This document shows positions 1 to 47,972 of a stretch of 47,972 nt of DNA, in pieces (within the stretch, counting starts at the first letter, position 1; the number at the start of each line of letters is the position of its first letter). Under the pieces are notes generated by a model. That model worked only from the letters and a program-made list of their open reading frames with translations. It searched no databases and had not been told where the DNA came from. Position numbers and translations under genes: made by a program. The stretch comes from a virus, in the IMG/VR virus record IMGVR_UViG_3300006917_000006, positions 1-47,972 of that record, one strand, 5' to 3'.

Positions 1-123
1 AGATTGTATTCGCAGGAGGAAATAACGGCGCGACTACCTTCGCCACCCTCAAGGCGAACTCGCTCGACCTCGGCACCTCGGCCGTCCTCGGCACGGGGAC
101 CATCGAGCTCGGCGCAGCCTCCG
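1..123. repeat. Terminal direct repeat, left copy (circular overlap)
   Basis: Bases 1-123 are identical to 47850-47972. The open reading frame of the tail gene continues in frame across the joined ends. This is what an assembler leaves on a circular or circularly permuted genome; a true 123-bp terminal repeat is less likely because it lies inside a coding sequence. Confidence 0.95.
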
Positions 124-6452: not shown

Positions 6453-9400
6453 ATGTTCGGTTTCCTCTCCCCAGAAGCAATTGCGGAGAAGGCGAAGACG
6501 GCTGGCCGAACCTTCTGGTCTACGTTCGAAGACGAGGTTCGGAACAACAAGGCGTTCTCGACCATCTCGAAGACCCTGGACTTTATGAACCAGGGTCATT
6601 CGCCTACGGTGGCGAAGACGCTCGGCATGGCTGCCTATATGGGCCCATCGGCGCTCATCGGAGCGACGGCGGAGAAGCTCGGAACGGAGATTTTCAAGGG
6701 GTTCACGCGGTCCGGTGCCTCACTGTGGACTCAGGGGTTCGGGATGGCACCGTGGAAGCCGGTTACGCCACTTGAGAAGAACTTCCTCGGCGACGAGGAG
6801 ATCAAGCCGTACGGAGAGAACGTCTCAGACGCCATCAAGTCCGGCTATAAGTTCGCCGACTGGTCCAACCTCAATGCGCCCGGCGACAAGAAGATCACGG
6901 GTCTCGGATTCGGTATCGGTTTCGCCGGTCTCTCTGCGCTCGACTTCACGCCGGCAGGAGAGGGCAAGCAGGCGATCAAGCTCGCTGGAAAGGCAAAGGG
7001 AGAGTTCGAGGCTGCGGTGAAGATCGCTGACGAGCTCCTCGATGCGCGGAAAGCCGCCAAGGCCGGAGCGGAAGTCCCGTTCAAGCAGCAGGCAGTCGAG
7101 TTCGGAAAGAAGGCGACCAACCAGATCGTCGACTTCAGCGCACAGCTGGCACGGGACGAGAAGGTGGTCGATAAGGCGTACCAGTCGAGGCAGGTGGTCA
7201 GCGCGGAAGACGTTGCGAACGAGCTTAAGTCACTGGGTACGGCGGGCGGGGCGAGTGACTTCCTCCTCGATCAGGTGCGTTCTGCCGGCTCGTATACGAA
7301 GAGCGAGGTCAATATCAAGGAGCTGCTCAAGCGTGACGGCGGTATCGCCGATTACATACGCAAGGGTGGTGAGCAGTTGCGCCGTTACAGCGGACCAGCC
7401 AACATGGACCGCCCGATCATCATCGGTCCAGATGGCGACGTTCTCGACGGGTTCAACAGGATCCATCGTGCATCGAAGGAGGGGATCGAGAAGCTACCGG
7501 CATACATAGCAGATTCTCAGGTAACGAAGCCGTCGGTAGGCACGATCGACGATCTCGTCGACTACTCGCTCGACTACGTGAAACAGGCGGGTCAGTTCAT
7601 GGACGACCAGGGCGTTACCGGAGCGATCCAGGACATGGTGCAGAAGGGCTATCGTCCCGACCACTTCGGCATGTACCTCATTGCCCAGCAGGCGGATGAC
7701 GTGGCGAAGGCAGGGTTCAAGACCGGCCTCAGCGACGCAGAGATCCAGGCGCTCAAGGGCCTCAGCCACGTGTACGAGCCGTATGCGCAGAAGATCTATT
7801 CGGCCAACAAGGCCATGCGCGACATGCTCGTCGAGAACGGCGTGTGGTCGCGCGAGTTCGCGGACAAGCTCGAGAAGCTCTACCCGAAGTGGGTTCCGCT
7901 CAAGCGCGTCATGGAGGTGTTCGGCGAGAGCTCGGGGTCGAGGGCCATCGGAGGACTGTCCGAGCAGACCATTGCCCGAAGGCTTGTCGGATCCGAGCGC
8001 GAGATCGAAGACCCGCTCGAGTCGCTGTTCGGTACCTACACGCAGGCGTTCCAGCAGGCGACGAAAAACAAGCTGGCGCAGACCTACGCTGATTTCTACA
8101 AGGCACCGGGAAACCCGCTCGGCATCAAGCCGATCAGGACCGTCGAGATGGTCAAGGAGCGGATCCGGCTCGCAGAGCAGTATACGAAGGCGAGCGACTC
8201 CTACCGGTCATTCGTCAAGGACGGAAAGGCGGTCAACAAGGACCTCAAGGCGCTGGCGAAGAAGTCCGCCAAGGTAGAGGAAGACTACAAGTCCATCATG
8301 GAAGAGGCGGCGGTACGCGCCGCGGAGTTCGACAGCGAATCGAAGCTCTGGGACCTGATCGAGAAGGCGGATACGCGTCTTCCTAAGATGGAGGAGCTGG
8401 CGAGAAAGACCAAGCTCGCCGAAGGAGACAAGCAGCTCTACGAGACGCTCGCGAACGAGCAGAAAGCGGCGATGGAAGAGATCCGCCAGGAGCTTATGCA
8501 GTACAAAGAGCCGGCCCGCGATCTCTCGCAGGGAACGCTGTCCCTCTACCGGGATGGCGTGAAGGAACTCTACGAGATCTCGCCGGAGGCGGCGACCGCG
8601 ATGAAGATGCTCGGCGTAGAGTCGATGAACCTCATCACGCGCGTGACCAGGCTGGCGGTTCGCACCCTCAAGTTCGGAACCTCGGGCGTGAGCGCACCGT
8701 TCGCCGTTGCTAACGCGTTCTTCCGCGATCTCCTTGGCGGACTGCTCAACACGCCGAACTCGCTTCGCGTGCTGAAGAACTATCCTAAGGCCCTGGGCGT
8801 AGCGGCGGCGCATGACTCGTGGTGGCTTCCGAAGAAGTATCGCGTCAACGCTGACAAGATCTACGACGAGCTCGTGCGCAACTCCGCTGGAGGAACGAGC
8901 TGGGACGTGGTGCGCGGCGAGGAGGCGAAGACCCTTCAGGACATCATCTCGCGGGCATCGCTGAGCAACCGGCTCGACTTCGCGACAGGCGTGCGCGAGG
9001 GAATCAAGGCGTACACGGAAGGAGGGATAAAGGCCGGTGCCAAGGCGGCGTTCGACAACGCGCACCCGCTCCAGTTCCTCGGCAGCGTGATACGCGACGT
9101 GGAGGACTTCTTCGGTCGCTCGGAGGAGATGGGTCGCCTCGCGCAGTACCTCGGCAACAAGGAGGCGTTCCTCAAGGCGGGGTACACGGAAGAGGAGGCG
9201 ACGCAGCAGGCCGCCCGCGTAGCACGTTGGGCGACGGCTAACTTCCGCCGCCACGGAGAATCGTCCCGTGCGCTCGATGCCCTGATCGCCTATTTCGGCG
9301 CTTCGATCCAGGGAAGCCGCGCGACGGTTCGTGCCGCAAAGGCTGATCCGAAGTGGTTCGCCACGAAGTTTATGACGATGGTGGGCGTTCCGACGGCAAT

Positions 9401-10490
9401 CGTCACGCTCTACAACCTCATGGACGACGACCGCAGGAAGGCGTACAACAGCCTCAACGACTATGAGAAGGAGAACAATCTCGTGTTCGTGTCCAATGAT
9501 GCCGCTATGGACCCTGAGACGCGGCGGTTCGGCGGCGTGTTCAAGTTCCCGCTCAACTCGAACCTCGGCGCAGCGCAGACGCTCATCCGCGCAGGAATCG
9601 AGAAGCTCGTGGGCAACAACTCGCCAGAATTCGACAAGGATCTCGCGAAGAAGCTCTTCGACCAGCTCGTGGGCACGGTCTCGCCGATCGAGCCGAGCAA
9701 GAAGGGCCTTATGAACAACTTCGCCACGCAGCTGTTCCGCCCGACGCTCGAGGTGGTGTCGAACTACAACTTCTTCACGGAGCTCCCTGTCGTGCCGCAG
9801 AGGCTCCAGAATCTCCTGCCCGAGGATCAGCGCATCAAGGGAGAGACCCCGGAGAGCGCGGCGGTGCTTTCCCGCGCACTGCGTGCGATGGGCGTCAACA
9901 TGAACCCCATCCAGACCGACCACTGGATCCGCGGTACGTTCGGGTCAGCGGCTTCGACGGTGCTTAACGCAACCGATCGCGGCGCTGCAGCGCTCGGACT
10001 GATCGACGAATCGCAGGTGGGAGGACGCGGCGTGATGGAAGACCTCAGCCGCCGCCTGTTCTCTGCCTCGGGAGGGGCGGACGAGAAGGGCGTGCAGGAC
10101 GAGATCACCCAGTACCAGCTCGAATCCAACTCGCTGAGCTACCGTCGCACCGACGCTGCGCAAGAGCTGCTCAAGAAGCTGCCGTCTCTCCAGGGAGACG
10201 AGCGCAGGAAGTACTTGCTCGAGCAGGAGCAGAAGTATCCGGGGATCATCGAGAAGGCGGCCGACATCGCAAAGGGTCAGGCGCTCGGCATGACGACGGC
10301 AGACAAGCGCGTCCAGTCGCTCGGCGTAGAGAACGGGACGCGTGCCCGGTACATCTACGACCACTGGAAGAAGATCAAGGATCCGGAGGAAAAGAGGGCC
10401 TACCTGACCAACCTGGCGCTCAAGCGCATCCTGACCGATGACGTGGCGGAGCAGGTCGTGACGCTCCTGGTGCAGGACCAGGCGAAGTAG
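6453..10490 (+). CDS. Large polyvalent internal virion protein with ParB-like motif
   Basis: At 1345 residues this is the largest protein. The N-terminal third has hydrophobic stretches (TLGMAAYMGPSALIGATAEK, GLGFGIGFAGLSALDF). Around residues 325-345 the motif GPDGDVLDGFNRIHRA matches the core of ParB/sulfiredoxin-type nuclease domains. A long coiled coil covers roughly 560-720. Then follows a segment with MNLITRVTRLAVRTLKFG and APFAVANAFFRDLLGG, reminiscent of the large polyvalent-protein-associated (LPD) domains. Such proteins are packaged and injected with the genome in many podoviruses. The gene ends the plus-strand block and its stop abuts the stop of the minus-strand block without any intergenic base. 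Ejection role is inference. Confidence 0.75.
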   Translation: MFGFLSPEAIAEKAKTAGRTFWSTFEDEVRNNKAFSTISKTLDFMNQGHSPTVAKTLGMAAYMGPSALIGATAEKLGTEIFKGFTRSGASLWTQGFGMAPWKPVTPLEKNFLGDEEIKPYGENVSDAIKSGYKFADWSNLNAPGDKKITGLGFGIGFAGLSALDFTPAGEGKQAIKLAGKAKGEFEAAVKIADELLDARKAAKAGAEVPFKQQAVEFGKKATNQIVDFSAQLARDEKVVDKAYQSRQVVSAEDVANELKSLGTAGGASDFLLDQVRSAGSYTKSEVNIKELLKRDGGIADYIRKGGEQLRRYSGPANMDRPIIIGPDGDVLDGFNRIHRASKEGIEKLPAYIADSQVTKPSVGTIDDLVDYSLDYVKQAGQFMDDQGVTGAIQDMVQKGYRPDHFGMYLIAQQADDVAKAGFKTGLSDAEIQALKGLSHVYEPYAQKIYSANKAMRDMLVENGVWSREFADKLEKLYPKWVPLKRVMEVFGESSGSRAIGGLSEQTIARRLVGSEREIEDPLESLFGTYTQAFQQATKNKLAQTYADFYKAPGNPLGIKPIRTVEMVKERIRLAEQYTKASDSYRSFVKDGKAVNKDLKALAKKSAKVEEDYKSIMEEAAVRAAEFDSESKLWDLIEKADTRLPKMEELARKTKLAEGDKQLYETLANEQKAAMEEIRQELMQYKEPARDLSQGTLSLYRDGVKELYEISPEAATAMKMLGVESMNLITRVTRLAVRTLKFGTSGVSAPFAVANAFFRDLLGGLLNTPNSLRVLKNYPKALGVAAAHDSWWLPKKYRVNADKIYDELVRNSAGGTSWDVVRGEEAKTLQDIISRASLSNRLDFATGVREGIKAYTEGGIKAGAKAAFDNAHPLQFLGSVIRDVEDFFGRSEEMGRLAQYLGNKEAFLKAGYTEEEATQQAARVARWATANFRRHGESSRALDALIAYFGASIQGSRATVRAAKADPKWFATKFMTMVGVPTAIVTLYNLMDDDRRKAYNSLNDYEKENNLVFVSNDAAMDPETRRFGGVFKFPLNSNLGAAQTLIRAGIEKLVGNNSPEFDKDLAKKLFDQLVGTVSPIEPSKKGLMNNFATQLFRPTLEVVSNYNFFTELPVVPQRLQNLLPEDQRIKGETPESAAVLSRALRAMGVNMNPIQTDHWIRGTFGSAASTVLNATDRGAAALGLIDESQVGGRGVMEDLSRRLFSASGGADEKGVQDEITQYQLESNSLSYRRTDAAQELLKKLPSLQGDERRKYLLEQEQKYPGIIEKAADIAKGQALGMTTADKRVQSLGVENGTRARYIYDHWKKIKDPEEKRAYLTNLALKRILTDDVAEQVVTLLVQDQAK

Positions 10491-11898: not shown

Positions 11899-12771
11899 TT
11901 AGAACTCGATGCCTGATCCGCAGTCCACCACGTCCAGCCCGTGCTCGCGCCACATGCGGATGACGCTCGGACGGTCGTCGAAGACCTTGTGAATGTGCTT
12001 TCCGCCTCCAAGGTACTTGTTGAGGATGTCCTCCTTGACCTCGGTATCGGGGCGGCGGTCCCCCGATCTGCGCATGATGAGCGTCAGGTAGTCTATGTCG
12101 TCGAGCACGTGGTCGGTGAGCCACGCGGTCGTCTCATTCCTGTACGTGTCGGGTCGGGCGGATACGAATACGATATCGTACCCGGCGTCGTAGAGAGGCT
12201 TGAGCTGGTCGAGCACGTCGATCCGGAGCGTGTCGAGCGGGATTGCTTCGAAGAACCCCTTCCAGTCCTTCTTCTCGACTCCTTTGACAAGGTGCAGGCG
12301 ATGGCTGATGTCAGCGATGGTCCCGTCCAGGTCGCAGACCACGTATCCCTTCTCGGGAGGATCCATGTAGCCGTGCTGCATCGCCATCTGGACGATCATG
12401 TCCTGGCCGACGGTCTTCTCCCGGAACACGTCGCGTAGGACGCACTCCTTCCAGCCGGTCTTGATCCTGACATGCTGGAACTTCGCTCCGTAGAGATCTG
12501 CGATGTGCTGCCACATGTCCTTGTGGCCGGGAGAGAGGTTGGTGTCATCAACGATCACGTTGACACCATCGGCGAGGAACATCCCCGCAAGCTCTTTCTC
12601 TGCCTCGATGGTCTTCTTCTCGTTGAGCGGCGTCCACTTGCCGAAGTGGAGCATCTCGCGGAGAAGGTCGCGGTTCAGGCGTACGCCGTTGCCTGCCTTA
12701 GCGAGCATTTCCTGTGCCGTCGTGGTCTTCCCTGACGCGGGGAGGCCAGACAGCATGATGAGCTTCGACAA
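11899..12771 (-). CDS. pseT: Polynucleotide 5'-kinase / 3'-phosphatase (T4 Pnkp type)
   Basis: A 290-residue bifunctional end-healing enzyme. The N-terminal kinase has the P-loop GLPASGKTT (residues 9-17). Lys15, Asp35 and Arg38 fall at the same numbers as the catalytic residues of T4 Pnkp. The C-terminal HAD phosphatase has DLDGT at 147-151, SARPDTY at 204 and a late DDRPS motif. It transfers phosphate to 5'-OH ends and removes 3'-phosphate or cyclic phosphate, preparing broken RNA for ligation. The partner Rnl2-type ligase is encoded 2.8 kb upstream in the same direction, and tRNA genes are present, so repair of cleaved tRNA is the likely job. Confidence 0.92.
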   Translation of the reverse strand: MSKLIMLSGLPASGKTTTAQEMLAKAGNGVRLNRDLLREMLHFGKWTPLNEKKTIEAEKELAGMFLADGVNVIVDDTNLSPGHKDMWQHIADLYGAKFQHVRIKTGWKECVLRDVFREKTVGQDMIVQMAMQHGYMDPPEKGYVVCDLDGTIADISHRLHLVKGVEKKDWKGFFEAIPLDTLRIDVLDQLKPLYDAGYDIVFVSARPDTYRNETTAWLTDHVLDDIDYLTLIMRRSGDRRPDTEVKEDILNKYLGGGKHIHKVFDDRPSVIRMWREHGLDVVDCGSGIEF

Positions 12772-14194: not shown

Positions 14195-15000
14195 ATTCCG
14201 AGTAGGTTCTCGATGGTGATCAGGTCCTCGTTCGCATCCTGCGTGTGGTCGAGCCACTTGCTGAGGAACTTGCCGCACATGAAGGCCGTGAAGTCCTCCT
14301 TGAAATGCTCGTTATCGCGGAAGTGCAGCGAGTAGCTGGCGATACCCGTATCCTTGTCCGTCGAGAGCAGGATGATGACGCGGCCGTCGTACTGCTCCTT
14401 CGTCTCTTCCTGGAGGGCCTGCTGGTAGGCGGCGGTCTGCGCCCAGTAGGTCTCCCTGACAGCGGTCCCGGTCTTGATGTCGCCCACGTACTTCTTTCCG
14501 TGGAGCACCATCGTGCAGTCGAGCTTTCCCACGTAGTCGTATTTCTTCGAGTAGACGACGCGCTCGGTATCGATGAAGTCGGGGCGCTGCTCGGCGATGA
14601 GCTGGCGGAACGCGTTGAGCTTGTCGAGGATCGCCGGCTCGTCAGGCTCGGGGAAATCGACGCCCTTGACGGTAAGTTCGGCGTACTTGTGGACCGACCT
14701 GCCGCGATCTGCCGCCCCACCCTTCTCTCTGAGGTGAGACTTCCGTGCGCCTTCGAGGATGTCCTCGAGCTCGTAGACCGTCAGCTCCCTGCCGGCCGTG
14801 AGCTGCTCGCGCACGTAGTTGAGCGCCATCTTAACCGTCCAGAAGTGGAGCGGCTTGGCGATGGAATCCAGCGCGGAGCTCACGCCCTGGATCACCGGAC
14901 CGTTCGGCTTTCCCTTCGTATAGCGGTGACGGTCGTCGTCGTAGTAGATCTTGACCTTCCCGTTATAGAGCTTGTGTTCCTCGAGGGATCCGGCGTTCAT
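14191..15000 (-). CDS. PD-(D/E)XK exonuclease, RecB/Cas4-like
   Basis: A 269-residue nuclease with the RecB-family layout: His104 (SVHKYAEL), KLDCTMVL with Asp161, GDIKTG with Asp174 and Lys176, and the C-terminal motif WAQTAAYQQAL (Gln188, Tyr192). These are the metal and DNA ligands of the lambda-exonuclease/RecB/Cas4 superfamily. It probably resects DNA ends in recombination or genome concatemer processing. It sits between GroES and the metallopeptidase, overlapping both by four bases, and travels with the NinG and DnaQ-like genes upstream. Confidence 0.85.
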   Translation of the reverse strand: MNAGSLEEHKLYNGKVKIYYDDDRHRYTKGKPNGPVIQGVSSALDSIAKPLHFWTVKMALNYVREQLTAGRELTVYELEDILEGARKSHLREKGGAADRGRSVHKYAELTVKGVDFPEPDEPAILDKLNAFRQLIAEQRPDFIDTERVVYSKKYDYVGKLDCTMVLHGKKYVGDIKTGTAVRETYWAQTAAYQQALQEETKEQYDGRVIILLSTDKDTGIASYSLHFRDNEHFKEDFTAFMCGKFLSKWLDHTQDANEDLITIENLLGI

Positions 15001-15299
15001 TTCCTGAGTACCGCCACCACGTCCTCGGCCCTGACGATGAGCGCCTTGCCGAGGTCAACGGGCGTCGAGCTGTACTTGTTGAAGAGCACGATGTCGCCAG
15101 GCTTGATGTACTGGCTCACGTCCACGTCCTTGGTGCCGGAGCCGACGGCGATGACCTCGCCCATCTCGGACTTGTCCTCCTCGTTCTGCGGGCGCTTGAA
15201 CTGACCCTTCTCCTCGATCTTGAACGGCTGGATGAGCAGGTTGTCCCAGAGGGGAAAAACGTTGGCTATGGTGAATTTAGGTGTCTGCTTAGATGTCAT
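14997..15299 (-). CDS. groES: Co-chaperonin GroES
   Basis: A 100-residue protein with the whole GroES beta-barrel: VFPLWDNLLIQPFKIEEK, GEVIAVGSGTK, YIKPGDIVLFNKYSSTPVD and ALIVRAEDVVAVL. The mobile loop (about residues 30-46) is charged and lacks the usual Ile-Val-Leu contact triplet, so its docking to GroEL must differ, perhaps tuned to the phage GroEL at 18957-20561. It would cap the chaperonin ring for ATP-driven folding of phage proteins. It overlaps the HAD gene by 11 bases and the nuclease by four. Confidence 0.93.
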   Translation of the reverse strand: MTSKQTPKFTIANVFPLWDNLLIQPFKIEEKGQFKRPQNEEDKSEMGEVIAVGSGTKDVDVSQYIKPGDIVLFNKYSSTPVDLGKALIVRAEDVVAVLRK

Positions 15300-15606
15300 T
15301 GACGTTGATTGCTTTGTCGTCGAGATAGCAGTCCGCGGGGATCTTGATGTTCGAGAAGGCGTGGTAGCGGATGTTGTTCTGCCTCAGCCACTTGAGCGTG
15401 ACGGGGATGTTCTCGTCCCTTCGGGCCGTGTAGATGACGACGAACCCGTGGCGGAACGCTTCCTCGACCTTCTCCGCTATGCGGTGGTTGACCGTCGATA
15501 CCGCTATCTCTTCCGGGGTCCAGCACTGCTCGTTGCAGAGCGTGCCATCGAGGTCTACGGCGAAGATCTTACCCCTGAGATCCATCCGCGATGCTGATTG
15601 AGTCAT
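15289..15606 (-). CDS. HAD-family phosphohydrolase
   Basis: A 105-residue minimal HAD fold: FAVDLDGTLC (nucleophile Asp, residues 17-21), VIYTARRDE (motif II region) and CYLDDKAINV (motif IV). No cap domain. Small phage HADs of this sort act on nucleotides or polynucleotide 3' ends. It lies between the RNA ligase (overlap 38 bases) and GroES, so a part in RNA end healing with the ligase is plausible but unproven. Confidence 0.8.
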   Translation of the reverse strand: MTQSASRMDLRGKIFAVDLDGTLCNEQCWTPEEIAVSTVNHRIAEKVEEAFRHGFVVIYTARRDENIPVTLKWLRQNNIRYHAFSNIKIPADCYLDDKAINVNDI

Positions 15607-16471
15607 TGAGTATGTCGACGTAGACCTGCTTCGCCTTCCGCATGACGAGGCCCTTGAGTTTCTTGAAGTCGAGCTTCGGTACCTTCTGCACGATTTCCCA
15701 TGCCTCTTCGGTGATCAGGTCGTGGTACACGGAGTTGGTGATGCGCGGGATGTCCTGCATGTCGAGACGATGGTCGAGAAGCGGTTGCGTCTTCTCCATG
15801 ATCTTCTTCACCCTCGGGAGCGTCACGTACTTGTTTACGACGTACATCTCCCAGTAGGTGTCGGAGTGCTTGTTGTTTCCGCCGAAGGTGATCGCGTTGT
15901 CCTCCTTGAAGGACTGCGTGACGATCTTCGCGTAGCAGAAGTCTCCGAACTGGTTGACGAACTCCATGTTCTTGAGCACCACGCCCTCGCCACGGTCGCC
16001 GAACGAGGACTTGCCGACGAACTCGTTGATCTCGTCGAGCGCAGGGTTGTCGATAGTGCAGATGATCGGAACCGTCTCTATGCCGTACTTCTTGGCGAGA
16101 TAGTCCACGTCGTTCGGAGGGAGATACTCGTGTCCGGTGTGGATGTCGAACAGGTAGAACTTCCGGTAGGCTGTCTCGTTGTACTGGATCGTGTGCCGCA
16201 CGAGCCACTCGCCGTAGAGCCGGAGATCGGGCTGTTCGGTCAGAAGCCGTACGATTCCCGGATGCGACTGCACGTACTCGACGAGCCCGTTGAATCCCTT
16301 CTCGGTGACATCCTGGTTGCGCGAACCGCAACGGATCACTCCGTCCTCGATCCAGACAGAAGCGTTAGCTCCGTCTACCTTCTCCTGGACCGTGACGGTT
16401 CCGTTCAGGATGCCATCAGTCTCTTCCTTGCCGAGCCGGTGGATCTTCTCGTACTTCCTGAAGTTGCTCAT
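15569..16471 (-). CDS. RNA ligase, Rnl2 type
   Basis: A 300-residue ligase. The nucleotidyl-transferase motif I EKVDGANAS puts the AMP-accepting lysine at Lys31. Motif III is LYGEW (85-89), motif IV is GEGVVLKN, and motif V follows as AKIVTQSFK. The length and order match the T4 Rnl2/RnlB family (PF09414), with a C-terminal helical domain. It seals 3'-OH/5'-phosphate nicks or breaks in RNA. With the Pnkp at 11899 it makes a complete heal-and-seal pair. I start at MSNFRKYEK because an upstream in-frame extension overlaps the exonuclease gene; the chosen ATG overlaps that gene's stop and follows ACCACTATCAA. Confidence 0.9.
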   Translation of the reverse strand: MSNFRKYEKIHRLGKEETDGILNGTVTVQEKVDGANASVWIEDGVIRCGSRNQDVTEKGFNGLVEYVQSHPGIVRLLTEQPDLRLYGEWLVRHTIQYNETAYRKFYLFDIHTGHEYLPPNDVDYLAKKYGIETVPIICTIDNPALDEINEFVGKSSFGDRGEGVVLKNMEFVNQFGDFCYAKIVTQSFKEDNAITFGGNNKHSDTYWEMYVVNKYVTLPRVKKIMEKTQPLLDHRLDMQDIPRITNSVYHDLITEEAWEIVQKVPKLDFKKLKGLVMRKAKQVYVDILNDSISIADGSQG

Positions 16472-17247
16472 TTGATAGTGGTAATGCGTTCTGATTGCAC
16501 ACTGTGCGACCAGCTTCCGCAAGCCTGACACTGGTACCGTTGCTGGCGGCCCGTGGAAGTGGACTGGAACCCGCGACGCTGAAGCTTTTCTCCGAGGCAC
16601 GCAGGGCACACGTTGACCTGTCCCGCGATGACGCCGAGGTTCGGGTGATTCTTTATCCACGGACGGACATAGAGATAGAGTTCTCGGAGCAGCGCTACGT
16701 CCTGTACGTTATAGGTGCGCATCTGCTTCCAGTACCTCTTGTTCCCGGCGATACAACCGAGCCACATCTCGAATCCTTCGTGTCTGACCTTCTCGCCGAG
16801 CCCGAGGAACTTGGACGCGTCCTGGAGCTTGTTGCTGTTGAGCTTGAAGTACTTCTTGAGAACCTTCTTCGTGTCGATCGACTTGAAGGGGCTGTAGGGC
16901 GGGAGTCCCCATTGCAGGAAGCGTGCATTGAGCTTCTTGATGTCGAACTCGTCCCCGTTGTGGGCGATGACGATATCTGCCTCGTCGAACAGCTCGTAAG
17001 CTTTGTTCACGAGGAACGCGTCATCAAGCTGGTACGGCGTATAGTTCGGATCGTCGCACAGCATGAGGCTATGGATCTTCCGATCGCCGTTCCAGCAATA
17101 TGCGAATCCGAGAAGCGTAGTCTCGCGTTCGAACTCGATGACGTTCTGCTCGTACTTTCCCCAGGTATATCCCAGGTTCGGAGCGGTCTCGATGTCGATG
17201 TAGAGTATCCTAGGCTCTCGGGACTCGACGACGTTGGCTTTTGCCAT
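16468..17247 (-). CDS. DnaQ-like 3'-5' exonuclease with C-terminal zinc ribbon
   Basis: A 259-residue protein. The RNase H-like exonuclease core has LYIDIET (Asp18, Glu20), IAHNGDEFDIKKLNARF (Asp102) and YNVQDV (Tyr179, Asp183), the DEDDy pattern. Residues 214-243 hold a zinc ribbon of two CxxC pairs (CPAC, CQAC), an unusual addition. It may process DNA or RNA ends; no polymerase is encoded with it. It leads the segment with RNA ligase, HAD and GroES, with an ATGA overlap downstream and a TACCACTAAACTAACAC leader. Confidence 0.85.
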   Translation of the reverse strand: MAKANVVESREPRILYIDIETAPNLGYTWGKYEQNVIEFERETTLLGFAYCWNGDRKIHSLMLCDDPNYTPYQLDDAFLVNKAYELFDEADIVIAHNGDEFDIKKLNARFLQWGLPPYSPFKSIDTKKVLKKYFKLNSNKLQDASKFLGLGEKVRHEGFEMWLGCIAGNKRYWKQMRTYNVQDVALLRELYLYVRPWIKNHPNLGVIAGQVNVCPACLGEKLQRRGFQSTSTGRQQRYQCQACGSWSHSVQSERITTIK

Positions 17248-17250
17248 GTG

Positions 17251-17862
17251 TTAGTTTAGTGGTATACCGTGTATCTTCCTTAGCTCACGCCAGTGCACTT
17301 TAGTCTTGTCGTGGCATGGCCTGCAGAGCGTCCTCCCGTTAGAGATCTCGTACCTGAGGTCGGGGAAGTATGCGAACGGCTTGATGTGATCTGCCTCTAG
17401 GTATGACCCGCGCATACCGCATGTTTGGCAAGTGTAGTTATCGCGCTCGAAGACTGACTTGCGCCACGCCCTCAGTTCTTGACTATTCCTTGCGAGGCGA
17501 TCGAGTTGATGCTTGGTGTATCCAACCCTCCTTTCGTTTGCTCGTTTCGTCATAAGAGCAGAGCGGCACTGGATCGAGCAGGTTTTCCTCTTGCGATAAA
17601 AAACCTGGGCCGGCTGAGTAAAGAATATCTTCTCACAAACGATACAGCACATCCTGAAAGAGTTAATCCTTTGGAATGTCACCCTGTGCTCCCTTGTGCA
17701 AAAATATTGACTGCGGGCTGGGGTTCCGGGCCTGTAATAACGAGCTGCACCACACAATGAACAATGCTCGACCCTACCCCTTCTTGGCTTGTTTCCTCTG
17801 GAATCCAGGAGGCTTGTTCCCTCCGTGGATGATGAAGTATTCCCTTTCGTAGTTGGATCCAT
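17251..17862 (-). CDS. HNH endonuclease
   Basis: A 203-residue Cys-rich protein. Residues 33-95 hold zinc-finger pairs ([31 protein letters not shown]). The C-terminal half is an HNH domain: [41 protein letters not shown]. The gene overlaps NinG by 89 bases if the ATG at 17862 is used; no closer good start codon exists, so the true N-terminus is uncertain. It may be a free-standing homing-type nuclease or a packaging-associated HNH. Confidence 0.8.
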
Positions 17863-18316
17863 TTTGAAGAACTTCGATGAGTCGTCCTAGGTCTTCTTCA
17901 GACCACCGCTTATCAATCCTGCTTTCGTGAATGAGGTACTTAAATGTCGGGAGTCCTAGTTTCTCAATCAGCGCCTCTGAGTAAACAGCGAGGTTCCCGT
18001 GCAGGTACAGATTGCACGACGCGCATTGGCCCCAAACATTAATCGGATTGAATTTGAGGTTCTGCCGCGCCCTTGAGATAAAGTGCCCGGCATGCATTCC
18101 TCGGCCGATCTCGCGCTTGCCGCAGGTGATGCACGTCCACCCGTCTCGCTCGCGAACGTACTTAGAGAAGAGTCGCCACAGTTTATCCTGTAGACGAGCC
18201 GCTGGTGTCTTCGATCTCCTGCGTAGCTTCTTCCCAGAACGCTTCAGCGGCTTACGGGCAAGGCTCGATGTCTTCTTTAACGTCTTCTGCGAGCGCTTCA
18301 GGGGGGTTCGCTTCAT
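17774..18316 (-). CDS. ninG: NinG/Rap-like recombination protein
   Basis: A 180-residue protein with a very basic N-terminus ([24 protein letters not shown]) and the NinG signature: [44 protein letters not shown]. In lambda, NinG (Rap) is a structure-specific nuclease acting on recombination intermediates. Zinc-binding cysteines and the HAGHF histidines are present. It overlaps the zinc-ribbon gene upstream by 65 bases and the HNH gene downstream by 89. Confidence 0.9.
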
Positions 18317-18503
18317 GGTAGATTCCGATCTTCGCGGGACTCATCCTCTTCTGTTCGGTGACAGGAATCTGTCGGAGCTCCATCGTCGCGCACGCGCAGT
18401 ACGGGCACGTGACGTTGGAGACCTTGAGTCCCCGTGGGACCTGGGTGAAACCCTCGGCCCCACAGTTGGTGCATATCGTCGGAACTCGGTACGTCCCGAA
18501 CAT
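18252..18503 (-). CDS. Zinc-ribbon protein
   Basis: An 83-residue protein with CTNCGAEG and CPYCACA, a treble-clef or ribbon zinc site, then a charged tail. I use the ATG at 18503, 11 bases after the upstream stop, rather than the longer frame which would overlap that gene. Function unknown. Confidence 0.65.
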   Translation of the reverse strand: MFGTYRVPTICTNCGAEGFTQVPRGLKVSNVTCPYCACATMELRQIPVTEQKRMSPAKIGIYHEANPPEALAEDVKEDIEPCP

Positions 18504-18514
18504 GGAGTGAACGA

Positions 18515-18949
18515 TTACAGTTCGAGAGCTTCCATGGCCTCGCACCATGCTTCGTACTCAGTTGCGAGCGGTCCGGCGAGCTTCTGGTCGGTGTTCAGGA
18601 CCAGATCCTTGACGGTCTTAACCTTGGTGAAGTTCCCGTCGTCGATGGACAGCGTGAAGTCCTGTTCCATGAGCTCGTTGAACTCCTTCTCGAACGCCTT
18701 CTGGGCGTCCGGGGAGATGTCGTAGGTCATAGTTCCGGTTCCGTTGTCGAGCATGATCGCGTTGCCATCCTCGTCCCGGTCGGCGTACTTCTCTGCCATA
18801 GCGAGCCGCTGGGCCTCGAGGGCGTCGATCGTGGGCTGGCACGCGTTGATGAACTTGACGCGCTCGCGGCTCTCCTTGGCTCCGAGGGGGAGCTGGTAGA
18901 GGAAGCGGCAGAGCGTGACGATATAGCGGTTCTTGATTCTGAGTTCCAT
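18515..18949 (-). CDS. DUF1617-like phage protein
   Basis: A 144-residue acidic helical protein: LYQLPLGAKESRERVKF, then a helix with IDALEAQRLAMAEKYADRD, and a C-terminus DLVLNTDQKLAGPLATEYE. The arrangement (short N-terminal strand, PLxGKESRxRxKF, charged helix) resembles DUF1617 found next to replication or packaging genes in phages of Gram-positive hosts. It lies seven bases after the GroEL stop codon. The ATG at 18949 follows GACTAACACACCT. Function unknown. Confidence 0.65.
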   Translation of the reverse strand: MELRIKNRYIVTLCRFLYQLPLGAKESRERVKFINACQPTIDALEAQRLAMAEKYADRDEDGNAIMLDNGTGTMTYDISPDAQKAFEKEFNELMEQDFTLSIDDGNFTKVKTVKDLVLNTDQKLAGPLATEYEAWCEAMEALEL

Positions 18950-18956
18950 AGGTGTG

Positions 18957-20561
18957 TTAGTCTTTCTTTTCATCCTCGATGAGAACGAGGTAGTCGCCCG
19001 ACAGGAGGGCCTGTGCGACGCTGATTGAGTTCTGCACGGAGTTCCTGAGCACGACGACGGGCTCGATGATCCCCGCCTCGCTCAGATCCTCGTATTGTCC
19101 GGTGTTCGCGTTGTAGCCGATCTTGTCGGTGACGTTCGCGAGCATGGTCTTGAAGTGCTCGTTGCAGTTCAGCGCGATCTGCTTGAGCGAAGACTGGCAG
19201 TAGACTTCCACAAGTCCGCGAATGTCCGTGTGGAGCTTCTTGAACTTCGTCTTCGAAAGCTTCTGGTAGATGTCCCAGAGCGTGATCCCTCCTCCGAGGA
19301 CGTAGCCCTCCTGAAGTGCGGAGCGCGTAGCGTTGATGGCGTCCTCGTAACGATGTAGCTTCTCGGTCACTTCGGGGAGCGTCGCTCCTCCGACGCGCAC
19401 GGTGGTGATGCCGTTGGTCAGGCAGGCGATGCGGCGCTTGAGGGTCTTGCCCTCTACGGAATCAGGGTCAACCTTGTCGAGCTGCTTGCGCAGGGCGTCG
19501 ATACGGAGATCGAGTCCTACGTTCCTGCCCTCTCCTGCGAGGAGCATGGTGCGGCGGTTGTCGGCAAGGGCCTTAGTGGCGTGGGTGAAGAACTCGGAGA
19601 GCTTCTTCCCGTCGCCCGACTCTCGTGCGGCCATGAGGCGGTCGGCGATCGACCCGTTCTTGTCGAGCACGACATTCCCCCTGAGATAGATCGCAAGGTC
19701 ATCGAGCGCGTCAGGATCGGACTCCTTGATGAGAAGGATCTCCATGTTCACCTTCTGGTCGAGGTGGTTCGTGATGAAGATGCCGGGTGCCTGCCCGATG
19801 AAGTCGGACGCGACCACGACGAGACGGTTCTCGCCGAGGGCTGCGGCAGCCTGCATGATCTCCATGACCTCCTCCTCGTAGTAGAGGCGCTTATCCGTGA
19901 TGAACACGAGCGGGTTCTCGTGAACAGCAGCCATGCCGCCGGGACGGTTGGCGAGATGCTGGCTGAAGAGTCCGCGCTCGATCACGAACCCGTTCTCCTC
20001 GATGATCTCGACGCCGAGCTTGCTATGCGCCTCGAGGAAGATGAGTCCATCGAGTCCCGCACGCTTCACCGCCTTCGCGACGTTCTTCGCGATGTCGGTA
20101 TCGTTGCTGGCAGAAACGGACGCTACGTACTCGAGCTGCTTGTCATCGTCTACTTTCCGTGCCCGTGAGTTGATCTCATCTACTAGGCACGATGCGACGT
20201 AATCGAGTTCCCGCGTAAGGTCGGCGTTGTTCCATCCTCGGTCGAGCAGGGCGAAGCCTGCGCGGATCAGAGTGTCAGAAAAGAGGATGGTGGTCGTCGT
20301 TCCGTCGCCCGCTACCGCATTGGTGCGGAACGAGGAGTTCTTGACGAACTCGACGATGGCGTTCTCTACGGGATCCTTGAGCTGGATATGGCGGGCGATC
20401 GTGAACCCGTCCTTGGTGATGAGGAAGTTGCCGTTCTGGTCCTCATAGACGACGTTCTTGCCCTTGGGCGTCAGGGTTCCCACTACGGGTCCTACGAGCT
20501 TGGCGAGTCCGGAGAACATGCGCTCCCGTACTGCGCTGTACTGGTAAGGTTCTGTATTCAT
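18957..20561 (-). CDS. groEL: Chaperonin GroEL
   Basis: A 534-residue group I chaperonin of full architecture. ATPase residues are intact: TKDGFTIARH with Asp51, AGDGTTTTIL (residues 84-93), and the distal EDAINATRSALQEG with Asp407 followed by GYVLGGGITL. Equatorial, intermediate and apical regions are all present (YVASVSASND, IEENGFVIERGLFSQHLA, ASDFIGQAPGIFI). It ends LIEDEKKD without the Gly-Gly-Met tail. Start chosen at 20561 because the promoter is at 20592-20620 and the longer frame would begin upstream of transcription. It forms the folding chamber with the phage GroES at 14997. Likely clients are the capsid or the large virion proteins. Confidence 0.95.
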   Translation of the reverse strand: MNTEPYQYSAVRERMFSGLAKLVGPVVGTLTPKGKNVVYEDQNGNFLITKDGFTIARHIQLKDPVENAIVEFVKNSSFRTNAVAGDGTTTTILFSDTLIRAGFALLDRGWNNADLTRELDYVASCLVDEINSRARKVDDDKQLEYVASVSASNDTDIAKNVAKAVKRAGLDGLIFLEAHSKLGVEIIEENGFVIERGLFSQHLANRPGGMAAVHENPLVFITDKRLYYEEEVMEIMQAAAALGENRLVVVASDFIGQAPGIFITNHLDQKVNMEILLIKESDPDALDDLAIYLRGNVVLDKNGSIADRLMAARESGDGKKLSEFFTHATKALADNRRTMLLAGEGRNVGLDLRIDALRKQLDKVDPDSVEGKTLKRRIACLTNGITTVRVGGATLPEVTEKLHRYEDAINATRSALQEGYVLGGGITLWDIYQKLSKTKFKKLHTDIRGLVEVYCQSSLKQIALNCNEHFKTMLANVTDKIGYNANTGQYEDLSEAGIIEPVVVLRNSVQNSISVAQALLSGDYLVLIEDEKKD

Positions 20562-20591: not shown

Positions 20592-20620
20592 ATTATAGCA
20601 GACTTTGACGGAAAAGTCAA
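20592..20620 (-). promoter_or_regulatory. groEL promoter
   Basis: Minus strand: TTGACT at 20615-20620 and TATAAT at 20592-20597, spacer 17 bp. Leader of about 24 nt with a weak AAAGGG 11 bases before the ATG. Confidence 0.9.
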
Positions 20621-20660: not shown

Positions 20661-20946
20661 CATGCGCATGATTTCTTACTGGATCGGCCGGCAGATTCGA
20701 AAGGCACACTGCCTGGGCGATCGTTCGGATGACTCCTGTTCGAAGTCCGTTCGCTGCGTCCGTGTGAGCACCCTCTGTAGGGGGCACCGACACACTGAGC
20801 GAACAATTACAGTATCCACTAACTGCTTCTTGATCAGGGACCAATGCAAATCCCTGGAAGCATATATGTGACGGGCGCGAGAGATGGCGCTTACGCACCA
20901 CCTTCGCCTAGGGAAACTAGACTACCCCTGTGGATAAGTCAAGCTG
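20661..20946 (-). other. Non-coding region between tRNA-Trp and terminator
   Basis: No convincing gene on either strand. It would be transcribed as the 3' end of the tRNA operon. Inverted repeats are visible (GTGTG...CACAC around a CCC/GGG pair at about 20760-20795), so a folded 3' segment is possible. A DnaA box (TTATCCACA, 20929-20937) overlaps a TTGACT on the minus strand but has no matching -10. Confidence 0.5.
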
Positions 20947-21019
20947 CGGGCGGCCAGGGAATCGAACCCTGCCAGCAGGATTTGGAGTCCCGCTCGCCAG
21001 CCTTGGAACATGGTCGCCC
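20947..21019 (-). tRNA. tRNA-Trp (CCA)
   Basis: Acceptor stem GGGCGAC/GCCGCCC with one A-C mismatch, anticodon loop CTCCAAA (CCA), T-arm CAGGG-TTCGATT-CCCTG, discriminator G. The D-arm is weak. CCA is not encoded. Confidence 0.85.
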
Positions 21020-21125
21020 TACAATCGATTCTAAGGCGCGTTATGTCAGAAGACGTAGCTGGGGTCATCTTTTGACAAAACGTCGCTCTCGTGGTCTTGT
21101 GGTGCAAATGCGAGCGTCCTGGCGG

Positions 21126-21197
21126 AGCGTCGTACGGGGCTCGAACCCGTTCCTTCTGATTGGAAGTCAGATGTGCTACCGGTAACACCTACAACGC
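21126..21197 (-). tRNA. tRNA-Gly (TCC)
   Basis: Seven-base acceptor stem GCGTTGT/ACGACGC, anticodon loop CTTCCAA in a TCTGA/TCAGA stem, T-arm ACGGG-TTCGAGC-CCCGT. Confidence 0.92.
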
Positions 21198-21199
21198 GG

Positions 21200-21271
21200 A
21201 GCCTCATAACGGATTCGAACCGATCTCTCCAATTTACAAGATTGGGGCTTTTCCTACTAAGCGAATGAGGC
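21200..21271 (-). tRNA. tRNA-Thr (TGT)
   Basis: Acceptor GCCTCAT/ATGAGGC, anticodon loop CTTGTAA in a CCAAT/ATTGG stem, canonical T-loop TTCGAAT. Two bases separate it from tRNA-Gly. Confidence 0.92.
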
Positions 21272-21312
21272 GCTATTATCATTATACCTATATCTTCATG
21301 TTTTGTCAAGTG

Positions 21313-21384
21313 CTCCCCAGGCAGGACTCGAACCTGCAACCTTCTCGTTAACAGCGAGCTGCTCTACCATTGAGCTACCAGGGA
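21313..21384 (-). tRNA. tRNA-Asn (GTT)
   Basis: Anticodon loop CTGTTAA, D-arm AGCTC...GAGC, T-arm GCAGG-TTCGAGT-CCTGC, acceptor TCCCTGG/CTGGGGA with wobble pairs. It lies directly downstream of the structured RNA. Confidence 0.92.
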
Positions 21385-21395
21385 ATATTCAGCAA

Positions 21396-21796
21396 GCCAA
21401 GGAGCGAGAGTCGTCGGGGGATTAATTCAGGAGGCCCGAAGGCCGTCCTGTCTGCCTTATTTATTCGGCAGCACCTTTCCACTCCCGCTCGCTGGCCTCC
21501 TGTTTTCTGACGGTGCGCTGGTGGAGGGGGCTAACGAAGTTACAACCTATTTCTCCTATCGGGAGCAACCCCGAAGGCGACTTGTTTCTCCTGGCGTGTG
21601 AGTGGCTGTCTCAGATACCTTTTGGGAGCGACCCCATATTCTCTCTGAGCCCTTAAACCTAGTTCCAGGAAGGCCGTCTAACCCCCACCATCAACGCGCC
21701 GCCCTTTGTTCGGACAGCCTGGTGCGCTGGGAGAGGGGCACTGCTAATTATTCACAGTCTAGCCGCGCGGCTTCGCCCCTCTCCAAACGCGCCAGG
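21396..21796 (-). ncRNA. Large structured RNA candidate inside the tRNA array
   Basis: About 400 nt with no plausible gene, between tRNA-Pro and tRNA-Asn. Three long-range stems partition it: 21396-21411 with 21481-21496, 21512-21530 with 21682-21700 (19 positions), and 21718-21738 with 21776-21796 (21 positions, 17 Watson-Crick). Inside lie smaller hairpins, e.g. 21428-21450. On the minus strand two hairpins close with the stable cUUCGg tetraloop, and G-U pairs favour that strand, the same as the tRNAs. The second and third stems share GGTGCGCTG/AACGCGCC halves, as if duplicated. Large ornate RNAs (GOLLD, ROOL) are known beside phage tRNA genes; I cannot assign this to either. Confidence 0.75.
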
Positions 21797-21809
21797 TTGT
21801 AAGGAACTG

Positions 21810-21880
21810 TCAGACTACGAGGGCTCGAACCCCGGCCAGATGGTCCCAAACCACCCGTGCTACCGCTACACCATAGTCTG
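21810..21880 (-). tRNA. tRNA-Pro (TGG)
   Basis: Acceptor CAGACTA/TAGTCTG, anticodon loop TTTGGGA in a GGTGG/CCATC stem, T-loop TTCGAGC, discriminator A. Immediately upstream of the structured RNA. Confidence 0.92.
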
Positions 21881-21885
21881 ATCTG

Positions 21886-21958
21886 TGGGCCATGAGGGAT
21901 TCGAACCCCCGACCACCTCCGTGTAAAAGAGTTGCTCTACCAGCTGAGCTAACGGCCC
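21886..21958 (-). tRNA. tRNA-Val (TAC)
   Basis: Acceptor GGGCCGT/ATGGCCC, D-arm AGCTC...GAGC, anticodon TAC in loop TTTACAC, T-loop TTCGAAT, discriminator A. The anticodon stem has a terminal A-G mismatch. Confidence 0.9.
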
Positions 21959-21961
21959 TGG

Positions 21962-22032
21962 GGTGGCTAATGGGACTTGCACCCATGTCGCCAGGTCCAC
22001 AACCTGGAGTTCTACTGCTGAACTATAGCCAC
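21962..22032 (-). tRNA. tRNA-His (GTG)
   Basis: Acceptor GTGGCTA/TAGCCAC, anticodon loop TTGTGGA in CCAGG/CCTGG, discriminator C as expected for His. The T-loop reads TGCAAGT rather than TTCRANY, and the base before position 1 is A, so G-1 would have to be added after transcription. Confidence 0.88.
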
Positions 22033-29363: not shown

Positions 29364-29713
29364 GCCTCTAGTATGGACGGGTAGCGGGGGAGGTCATTGC
29401 ACTCCGGCCGCGCCTCCTCGAAATGGATGGCCGCGAAGAGGTTCCATGCCGCCTGCGCGAGATGATCCTCGTCCCGCATCCCCTCGCGGTACTGATTTAT
29501 GTGGCGCAGGGCCGAGTCGAGGGCGCGGCTGATCGGGAATCCTCCCTCCCAGTTGCGCTCCCCCTTCTGTGATGCCCCGCGCTCGTATACGCCGGCAAGC
29601 CTGCGCAGGGCGATCGGCGAGATGAGGTCGAACCTTCCCTTGCCGGTCGTGTCAGAGCGTACAGCCCCGGTCCCGAACTCCACCACCTTGTCGTGGTGCG
29701 TCTGGTATTGCAT
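29360..29713 (-). CDS. dATP/dGTP diphosphohydrolase N-terminal domain protein (DUF5664-like)
   Basis: A 117-residue protein with GRFDLISPIALRRLAGVYERGA, GERNWEGGFPISRALDSALRH, NQYREGMRDEDHLAQAAWNL and AAIHFEEARPECND. This is the conserved block of the domain named dATP/dGTP diphosphohydrolase, N-terminal (formerly DUF5664), a MazG-like helical fold whose acidic residues (ERGA, DEDH) bind metal. It probably hydrolyses purine dNTPs or a related nucleotide, shaping the pool for replication. Start ATG at 29713 after ACACTACCA. Confidence 0.8.
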   Translation of the reverse strand: MQYQTHHDKVVEFGTGAVRSDTTGKGRFDLISPIALRRLAGVYERGASQKGERNWEGGFPISRALDSALRHINQYREGMRDEDHLAQAAWNLFAAIHFEEARPECNDLPRYPSILEA

Positions 29714-29963
29714 TGGTAGTGTGAAGCGTTTTGATGCGTTTGTGCTCCTGCCCCATAGCCAGCGGCAGGTGCGGCGAGAAGTGTTCCTTCTCGTCAAGAT
29801 AGAGATCGTAGTGGACCTGCCATCCGCGGGGCGTCAGCTTCGCGTGCCAGCGCCCCGAGCTGTCCGGCTTGACCCAATCTCCATGCTTGCGTTTCGTGTA
29901 TCCGGCACGAGCGAGCGCCCTCTGGGCGTGCCCGCCGAAGCCGGTGAGCGTGAAGTGCCCCAT
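29652..29963 (-). CDS. Hypothetical protein overlapping its neighbours
   Basis: A 103-residue frame. The first 75 residues look real and structured (GFGGHAQRALARAGYTKRKHG, GWQVHYDLYLDEKEHFSPH); the last 28 are Gly/Arg-rich and overlap the next gene by 62 bases. It also overlaps the upstream gene by 130 bases. Unknown function. Confidence 0.55.
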   Translation of the reverse strand: MGHFTLTGFGGHAQRALARAGYTKRKHGDWVKPDSSGRWHAKLTPRGWQVHYDLYLDEKEHFSPHLPLAMGQEHKRIKTLHTTNAIPDAPRQGGGVRDRGCTL

Positions 29964-30356: not shown

Positions 30357-30372
30357 TGTGGTAGTGGATAGT

Positions 30373-30410: not shown

Positions 30411-30423
30411 CAGCAATCCATGA

Positions 30424-30645: not shown

Positions 30646-30653
30646 TGTAAATA

Positions 30654-31412: not shown

Positions 31413-31430
31413 CCTTTTGCTTTTCGGCTT

Positions 31431-32605: not shown

Positions 32606-32606
32606 T

Positions 32607-46906: not shown

Positions 46907-47972
46907 ATGGGATTTCGAGAACCACAAACACCGGGAATCGGCCTTTCTGGATCTGGCCAGCTTACCCCATCCGAGGTACTGACCGTCCAGAACATCTCCG
47001 CGCTCGGAGATCCGGGTGCTGACCGCATCCTGTTCTGGGACGCATCTGCCGGATCGTTCCAGTATCTTGAGGTGGGGGCGAATCTTACGATCACGGGAAC
47101 GACTCTTGATGCTTCGGGAGGAGGTGGAGGAAGCCCAGGAGGCTCAGACACGCAGCTCCAGTACAACAATTCGTCCGCGTTCGGCGGAATTTCTGGGGCG
47201 ACTTCGGACGGGACAAACCTGACCGTACTCGATGCGAACTTCATAATCGCCGACGATGGTGATGCAACCAAGAAGCTCAAGTTCCAGGTATCGGGTATCA
47301 CCACCGGGACAACACGAACCGTAACGCTTCCTGACGCGTCTGGAACGATGACGCTGCTGGGCAACTCTTCTACCGGCTCCGGGTCGGTAGTGCTTGCCAC
47401 ATCGCCAGTTCTGGTGACGCCGAATCTCGGCACGCCTTCGGCAGTAACACTGACCAATGCTACGGGCCTTCCGGTTTCTACGGGTATCTCTGGTCTTGGA
47501 ACGGGCGTCGCCACGGCCCTTGCCGTCAACGTCGGCTCGGCAGGAGCCTTCGTTACATTCAATGGTGCGCTCGGTACGCCGAGTTCCGCAACGCTCACGA
47601 ACGCAACCGGCCTCCCTATCAGTACGGGTGTTTCAGGCCTGGGAACAGGAGTCGCGACATTCCTCGCCACGCCGTCCTCCGCGAACCTCGCCTCTGCGAT
47701 CACGGACGAGACCGGTTCTGGCGCTCTCGTTTTCGGTACCTCGCCGACGTTCACGACGAGCATCATCACGCCGAAGATCGTTGGTGGTTCGGCGACCACG
47801 GGTACGCTTCTCACCATCCAGACGACATCTGGTAATGGAACGACCGACCAGATTGTATTCGCAGGAGGAAATAACGGCGCGACTACCTTCGCCACCCTCA
47901 AGGCGAACTCGCTCGACCTCGGCACCTCGGCCGTCCTCGGCACGGGGACCATCGAGCTCGGCGCAGCCTCCG
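46907..47972 (+). CDS. Tail fiber-like virion protein, N-terminal part (continues at base 3)
   Basis: The 5' part of the split gene: 355 complete codons to the contig end, of which the last 123 bases repeat the start of the window. The N-terminus is GFREPQTPGIGLSGSGQLTP. A Gly-rich hinge follows, then two related repeats with the core LGTPSxxTLTNATGLPxSTG and GxxGLGTGVAT, then ITDETGSGALVFGTSPTFTT. This repeat wording is frequent in fiber-like proteins of environmental phages. Together with 3-863 it gives about 601 residues. It likely forms a trimeric fiber or baseplate spike for host contact. Confidence 0.85.
   Translation, partial: MGFREPQTPGIGLSGSGQLTPSEVLTVQNISALGDPGADRILFWDASAGSFQYLEVGANLTITGTTLDASGGGGGSPGGSDTQLQYNNSSAFGGISGATSDGTNLTVLDANFIIADDGDATKKLKFQVSGITTGTTRTVTLPDASGTMTLLGNSSTGSGSVVLATSPVLVTPNLGTPSAVTLTNATGLPVSTGISGLGTGVATALAVNVGSAGAFVTFNGALGTPSSATLTNATGLPISTGVSGLGTGVATFLATPSSANLASAITDETGSGALVFGTSPTFTTSIITPKIVGGSATTGTLLTIQTTSGNGTTDQIVFAGGNNGATTFATLKANSLDLGTSAVLGTGTIELGAAS
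47850..47972. repeat. Terminal direct repeat, right copy
   Basis: Identical to bases 1-123. Marks the circular join. Confidence 0.95.

What the first reader, a model, noticed from the sequence alone, without database searches (positions are those of the whole stretch)
14997..20561. Phage encodes both GroEL and GroES
Seen: a 534-residue GroEL with all ATPase motifs and a 100-residue GroES, same strand, 3.7 kb apart. Known: most phages borrow host GroEL; some carry only a GroES-like protein (T4 gp31) or only a GroEL. Both in a genome under 50 kb is rare. Oddities are the missing Gly-Gly-Met tail and the charged GroES mobile loop without the usual hydrophobic triplet, suggesting a co-evolved private pair.
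Basis: partly seen in the sequence, partly recalled or inferred. Interest (0 to 1): 0.78.

Follow-up and report, generated by a model that had tools for sequence, protein, structure and literature searches.

The report
Small phage's private GroEL-GroES pair
This complete 48-kilobase phage genome carries its own protein-folding chamber (GroEL) and lid (GroES); having both is common among phages with a GroEL, but here they belong to an unnamed family of small phages whose chamber and lid have both changed at the usual contact points, as if they now fit only each other.

Summary
A 534-aa GroEL (18957-20561, -) and a 100-aa GroES (14997-15299, -) pass Pfam cut-offs and fold as predicted. The window is a complete genome of 47,849 bp: it has a 123-nt terminal repeat, and an independent identical contig crosses the ends. 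A missing GGM tail is normal for phage GroELs. What is unusual is the lineage. Ten records (the window and nine unnamed relatives; eight of the ten are 45-51 kb) carry this GroEL, and all ten carry this GroES. Each protein forms one clade (GroEL 100/100 for 8, GroES 97 for 9). The GroES mobile loop is mostly two residues shorter and its third docking residue (E. coli L27) is charged in 9 of 10. The matching GroEL groove keeps 4-5 of 8 large hydrophobic residues, against 7-8 in bacteria. Published E. coli mutants at L27 abolish docking, so these lids probably fit only their own chambers. The private interface is inferred, not shown; a mirror-tree test gave little support beyond shared ancestry.

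The parts
18957..20561 (-). GroEL-like group I chaperonin, 534 aa
   Evidence: PF00118 2.5e-36, phrog_5725 3.1e-100; model pLDDT 89.6, best PDB match GroEL 4ki8 E 4e-41
14997..15299 (-). GroES-like co-chaperonin, 100 aa
   Evidence: PF00166 1.5e-12; model pLDDT 85.7, Cpn10 1wnr Z 12.9
15165..15227 (-). GroES mobile loop (residues 25-45), 21 aa instead of 23, no hydrophobic triplet
   Evidence: pLDDT block 31-40 = 56
15192..15200 (-). residues F34-K35-R36, at the place of E. coli GroES I25-V26-L27
19839..19877 (-). GroEL helix H (residues 229-241), L234 -> M; charged or polar in 6 of 8 full-length lineage GroELs
19761..19805 (-). GroEL helix I region (residues 253-267): L259 -> P, V264 -> T, N265 kept
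20592..20620 (-). sigma-70-like promoter TTGACT-17-TATAAT with TG before the second hexamer, just upstream of groEL
   Evidence: 11 of 12 matches, sequence; but 4 promoter-like sites found against 3.6 expected by chance in this stretch
15300..18956 (-). genes between the pair: 152-aa phrog_1401 protein, 98-aa ORF, NinG, HNH, DnaQ-like exonuclease, RNA ligase, HAD/PNKP-like
   Evidence: the closest sister G075 also has relatives of the 152-aa gene and of the DnaQ exonuclease between groEL and groES
1..123 (+). terminal direct repeat, left copy
47850..47972 (+). terminal direct repeat, right copy

Best explanation
A complete small tailed-phage genome encodes its own group I chaperonin and lid, inherited as a unit in a lineage of about 45-51 kb phages. 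A host-type promoter would drive groEL (inferred). The GroEL ring binds ATP and unfolded phage proteins, and the phage GroES closes it. The lid docks through an altered contact: a two-residue-shorter mobile loop with a charged residue at the place of L27, onto a groove that has lost the hydrophobic residues L259 and V264 and, in most members, L234. It is therefore expected to work with its own ring and not with the host's. Shown: gene identity, complete genome, co-inheritance, paired departures at the interface. Inferred: folding activity, docking, exclusivity, substrates (capsid or other virion proteins).
For: Both genes pass family cut-offs and fold correctly. Catalytic residues are kept; N265, whose A mutant blocks GroES binding in E. 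coli GroEL (PMC3514286 passage), is kept in 9 of 9 lineage GroELs examined. Of 40 portal relatives, 8 have GroEL and the same 8 have GroES; all 6 records of 46 kb or more have both. A ninth relative, found through GroEL, also has both and a 42% identical portal. GroEL lineage is one clade, 100/100, 8 sequences; GroES one clade, 97 SH-aLRT, 9 sequences. Gene order groEL-groES in 10 of 10 lineage records (window) against groES-groEL in 46 of 47 other viral contigs with GroES in their flanks. Loop span 21 aa in 8 of 9 lineage GroES, against 23 in 67 of 76 bacterial and 43 of 48 viral. Position 27 charged in 9 of 10. Large hydrophobic residues at 8 groove positions: 4-5 in 8 lineage GroELs, 7-8 in 81 bacterial, 7-8 in 80 viral. 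In E. coli, IVL contacts L234, L237, V264 and L27A, L27D, I25A or I25D abolish binding (PMC5575113 passages).
Against: Mirror-tree: GroEL-GroES distance correlation 0.70, but only 0.25 after removing the portal distances (8 taxa), so no clear coupling beyond shared ancestry. A salt-bridge model for positions 27 and 234 failed: among six pairs in which both residues are charged, four are opposite (two of these four are close relatives) and two alike (D/E in G076, R/R in G081). Among 17 named phage GroELs the groove varies widely (3-8 of 8), so groove erosion alone does not show a new lid contact. G32 is T or S in 6 of 8 lineage GroELs, which could weaken ATP use. NCBIfam cut-offs are missed. 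No complex was modelled and nothing was tested in the laboratory.
Confidence: 0.62

Rival explanations
1. The two proteins do not work together: the phage GroES caps the host GroEL (as T4 gp31 does) and the phage GroEL acts alone as a holdase, as the EL, OBP and AR9 chaperonins do.
For: Groove erosion recalls the EL chaperonin, whose groove is narrow and which ignores GroES (PMC7185714 passages; PMC9598537 introduction). The genes are 3.7 kb apart here. One distant relative, G039 (portal 25% identical), has a GroEL and no recognisable GroES.
Against: All 10 lineage records with this GroEL carry this GroES, and none was found with one alone. Charged residue 27 predicts loss of docking to a canonical GroEL. 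The window GroEL is nearer to bacterial GroEL (E 1.9e-71) than to EL (1.9e-20) or the chaperonin 6hdd, which I recall to be OBP's (7.1e-14), in the PDB search.
Confidence: 0.17
2. The pair has been turned to another use (for example a scaffold, a virion part or a decoy) and no longer folds proteins.
For: Divergence is extreme (end branch 4.3 in the C20 tree without sisters); G32 and D495 are changed; the hydrophobic binding groove is eroded.
Against: Catalytic aspartates and the GGG motif are kept across 8 lineage GroELs; both proteins keep the full fold.
Confidence: 0.12
3. Ordinary phage chaperonin pair: the loop and groove changes are drift without functional meaning, and the lid works with any GroEL.
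For: Both proteins evolve fast; the partial correlation is weak (0.25); GroES of G057 keeps V-V-V.
Against: The E. coli lid loses binding with a single change at position 27, and 9 of 10 lineage lids have a charge there, while 10 of 10 named and 48 of 48 viral-contig GroES keep at least two of three hydrophobic residues.
Confidence: 0.08
4. Host contamination or a recent copy of host genes.
For: Some public phage records with GroEL look like host DNA (for example Enterococcus and Listeria 'phage' fragments).
Against: At most 33% identity to any bacterial GroEL returned, a long branch outside the bacterial radiation, sister phages with the same pair.
Confidence: 0.01

Closest known systems
Bacterial group I chaperonin GroEL-GroES (E. 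coli)
   Same: Fold, domain layout, catalytic aspartates, one GroEL with one GroES
   Different: 29% identity to E. coli GroEL, 33% at most to any bacterial GroEL returned; gene order reversed and split; GroES docking triplet and GroEL groove changed; no GGM tail; fails NCBIfam GroEL and GroES cut-offs
GroEL+GroES pairs of Flavobacterium elemo (60 kb), Cellulophaga phi38:1 (72.5 kb), podovirus MW202828 (60.9 kb), Maribacter phage Panino (77.2 kb)
   Same: Tailed phages with both genes; elemo and MW202828 also have groEL before groES; Panino from passages
   Different: Adjacent or nearly adjacent genes in the three read here, larger genomes, GroES of those three keeps at least two hydrophobic residues in the triplet; their GroELs are not in this clade
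Marine and soil viral chaperonins (Marine et al. 2017, recalled, only its reference entry seen; Wu et al. 2021, PMC8390657 passages)
   Same: Uncultured phages with divergent group I chaperonins
   Different: Marine et al. is recalled to infer genomes over 70 kb; this lineage is 45-51 kb
Phage EL / OBP / AR9 chaperonins
   Same: Phage-encoded, divergent, altered groove (EL)
   Different: Those work without a co-chaperonin; this lineage always has one and is nearer to bacterial GroEL
T4 gp31
   Same: Phage lid with the Cpn10 fold (1g31 Z 9.4)
   Different: T4 uses the host GroEL (that it has no GroEL of its own is recalled); little sequence likeness (9-12%)

Membership tests
Group I chaperonin (Cpn60/GroEL) | Cpn60_TCP1 profile over its cut-off | tested here: met
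   125.9 bits, cut-off 34.3
Group I chaperonin (Cpn60/GroEL) | Three-domain GroEL fold | tested here: met
   pLDDT 89.6; 4ki8 E 4e-41, TM 0.81
Group I chaperonin (Cpn60/GroEL) | Catalytic residues D52, D87, D398 and GDGTTT motif | tested here: met
   kept; G32T and D495E changed
Bacterial GroEL proper (TIGR02348 equivalog) | Score over the curated cut-off | tested here: not met
   312.2 bits, cut-off 582.1; subfamily NF009487 343.8 against 352. Elemo and MW202828 GroELs also miss TIGR02348
Group I chaperonin (Cpn60/GroEL) | Heptameric ring capped by a co-chaperonin | not testable with these tools
   no complex prediction or experiment possible
Cpn10/GroES | Cpn10 profile over its cut-off | tested here: met
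   47.8 bits, cut-off 21.1
Cpn10/GroES | Cpn10 fold | tested here: met
   1wnr Z 12.9, 79 residues, rmsd 2.4; first rows of other families Z 7.4
Canonical GroES docking | Hydrophobic tripeptide in the mobile loop | tested here: not met
   F-K-R; 74 of 75 bacterial and 58 of 58 other phage GroES have at least 2 of 3
Bacterial GroES proper (NCBIfam) | Score over any curated GroES cut-off | tested here: not met
   best 50.7 against 96
EL/OBP/AR9-type phage chaperonin | Works without co-chaperonin | not testable with these tools
   but a GroES gene is present, and EL is a far weaker match than bacterial GroEL
T4 gp31-type lid | Phage lid used with host GroEL, phage has no GroEL | tested here: not met
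   the genome has its own GroEL

The most novel reading that the evidence does not exclude
A lineage of small phages has rebuilt the chamber-lid contact that is almost invariant from bacteria to mitochondria: the lid's hydrophobic triplet is replaced by a short loop ending in a charged residue, and the chamber's groove has changed to match, giving a chaperonin pair that does not cross-react with the host's GroEL or GroES.
Probability: 0.42. Interest if true: 0.74.

Novelty: new variant of a known kind. Interest (0 to 1): 0.52.

Why it matters
Phage-encoded GroEL-GroES pairs are known but little studied as pairs: the phage chaperonins with structures described in the papers read here (EL, OBP, AR9) work without a lid. 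This lineage offers ten natural pairs in small genomes, with departures at residues that single-mutant work shows to be indispensable in E. coli. That makes the question 'what can replace the hydrophobic triplet?' directly testable, and could yield a chaperonin system that runs in E. coli without touching the host's. It also shows that a full pair is affordable, and kept, in genomes of about 46-48 kb.

Tried and rejected
Rarity of the pair: rejected. Missing GGM tail as a special sign: rejected. Contaminant or recent host copy: rejected. Single-sequence scans for close relatives of GroEL and GroES, and an exact DNA pattern for ten GroEL residues: no relative found; relatives came only through the DnaQ exonuclease, the portal alignment and GroEL alignments with sisters.

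Salt bridge between GroES 27 and GroEL 234: looked at on nine pairs, then tried on a tenth (G081), which gave R/R; not supported. Mirror-tree coupling beyond ancestry: weak. Lifestyle of the phage and its host: not determined. Named relatives of the phage: the portal has no match in 50,697 phage records. The genome-size comparison rests on the 40 and 60 rows listed out of 246 matching records; shorter records there were fragments, unannotated or host-like. Marine et al. 2017 could not be read. Literature searches for phages with both genes; none of the listings names this lineage, but most subscription journals are not held.
Full report
What is there. The window is a whole IMG/VR virus record. 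Window 18957-20561 (-) encodes a 534-aa GroEL and 14997-15299 (-) a 100-aa GroES. Both pass Pfam cut-offs (PF00118 125.9 bits against 34.3; PF00166 47.8 against 21.1) and match PHROGs chaperonin families. AlphaFold2 models built on alignments of window and viral or bacterial loci have mean pLDDT 89.6 (GroEL) and 85.7 (GroES, mobile-loop block 56); their best PDB matches are GroEL (4ki8, E 4e-41) and Cpn10 (1wnr, E 2.6e-6, Z 12.9).

The genome is complete. Bases 1-123 equal 47850-47972. A separate IMG/VR contig (L230, 22,058 bases held) is 100% identical to window 29645-47972 and continues into window 1-3853. It does not cover the chaperonin genes. The unique length is 47,849 bp. Around the pair lie replication and RNA-repair genes (NinG, HNH, DnaQ-like exonuclease, RNA ligase), and seven tRNA genes just upstream. 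A promoter-like site TTGACT-17-TATAAT ends 30 nt before the groEL start codon; the scan as a whole found no more sites than shuffles give (4 against 3.6), so this is a lead only.

The pair is not rare. PF00166 searched in 47 records with GroEL (the window, 10 named phages, and 36 of the 80 viral contigs) gave GroES in 34 (32 over the cut-off): the window, 9 of 10 named phages, and 24 of 36 contigs. Elemo, phi38:1, Calle_3, immuto and podovirus MW202828 are annotated with both side by side or one gene apart. Papers on Panino and Pv27 report both (passages). The lost GGM tail is also usual in phages.

What is not usual is the lineage. Single-sequence scans found no close relative of either protein. 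The DnaQ exonuclease led to contig G038 (46,444 bases), a true sister: terminase 51%, portal 47%, capsid protein 68%, GroEL 40%, GroES 37% identical over the aligned parts. A portal alignment found 40 related contigs. Of these, 8 have GroEL and the same 8 have GroES. All six records of 46 kb or longer have both. The 32 with neither are G080 (38 kb, portal 29% identical) and 31 records of at most 26 kb; one of them (G042) is the window's own virus, cut short. A last scan with lineage GroELs found one more, G081 (45,460 bases, portal 42%), again with both. With the window, that is ten records with this GroEL and ten with this GroES. The portal has no match among named phages.

Phylogeny. Without the sisters the window GroEL sits alone on a very long branch. 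With seven sisters, all eight form one clade (100/100) with a stem of 1.79 changes per site; window and G075 pair at 97/94. The nine GroES known at that point form one clade (97 SH-aLRT). G057 (GroEL split) and G081 (found later) were not in the GroEL tree, and G081 was not in the GroES tree. The simplest reading is that the pair was inherited together. Gene order is groEL then groES in 10 of 10 (and the window), while 46 of 47 other viral contigs with GroES in their flanks have groES first, 43 of 47 within 45 nt. In most lineage members the pair is close; in the window and G075 the DnaQ exonuclease and other genes lie between, so the 3.7-kb gap looks like a shared later rearrangement of that branch.

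The interface. In E. coli the GroES mobile-loop residues I25-V26-L27 touch GroEL L234, L237 and V264 (PMC3514286 passage), and I25A/D or L27A/D abolish binding (PMC5575113 passages). In the lineage the triplets are FKR (window), VVK, FIR, LID, VFR, TYD, IIK, VVK, VVV and TSR: position 27 is charged in 9 of 10. The loop span is 21 residues in 8 of 9, against 23 in most others. Among 58 other phage GroES, all have at least 2 of 3 hydrophobic residues, as do 74 of 75 bacterial (the exception is probably a truncated ORF). On the GroEL side, L234 is E, Q or K in 6 of 8 full-length lineage sequences, L259 is P in 6 of 8, V264 is A, S, T or G in 8 of 8, while L237 stays L (M in the window) and N265 stays N. 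Counting large hydrophobic residues at eight groove positions gives 4-5 in the lineage, 7-8 in 81 bacterial and 80 viral-contig GroELs, and 3-8 in 17 named phages. G32, invariant in the other 178 sequences, is S or T in 6 of 8 lineage GroELs.

Reading. Retention of both genes in every member, one origin for each, and paired changes at known contact residues make a functional private pair the best explanation. What weakens it: distance matrices of GroEL and GroES correlate (0.70), but little beyond what both share with the portal (partial 0.25; 8 taxa); and a simple charge-pairing model failed on the tenth genome. Docking, folding activity, ring number, substrate and host remain untested.

Noticed in passing
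window 15569-16480 (-), 11899-12771 (-), 20946-22032 (-): RNA ligase (PF09414 3.6e-27) and a polynucleotide kinase-phosphatase (phrog_505 1.2e-61) in one genome with seven tRNA genes: a possible tRNA-repair set against host anticodon nucleases.
   Followed up: no
window 21281-21309 (-): A perfect 12-of-12 sigma-70 promoter match inside the tRNA cluster.
   Followed up: no
G039 (L223), record 35232-36824: A distantly related phage contig (41.7 kb) has a GroEL close to a terminase-like gene and no recognisable GroES (the terminase reading is from its sequence by eye).
   Followed up: partly
L276 404-1441 and 1486-1878 (G057): The GroEL of G057 is split into two open frames of 345 and 130 aa, from a frameshift, an insertion or an assembly fault.
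   Followed up: no
Cellulophaga phi38:1 (KC821614) 50246-50428: A second Cpn10-like match inside a hypothetical protein gp089, far from the annotated Cpn10; also seen in Calle_3.
   Followed up: partly
window 6453-10490 (+): A 1345-aa protein at the end of the structural block, matching only PHROGs of unknown function.
   Followed up: no
window 46900-47952 (-): A 350-aa ORF on the opposite strand between structural genes, overlapping the right terminal repeat, with no PHROGs or Pfam match.
   Followed up: no
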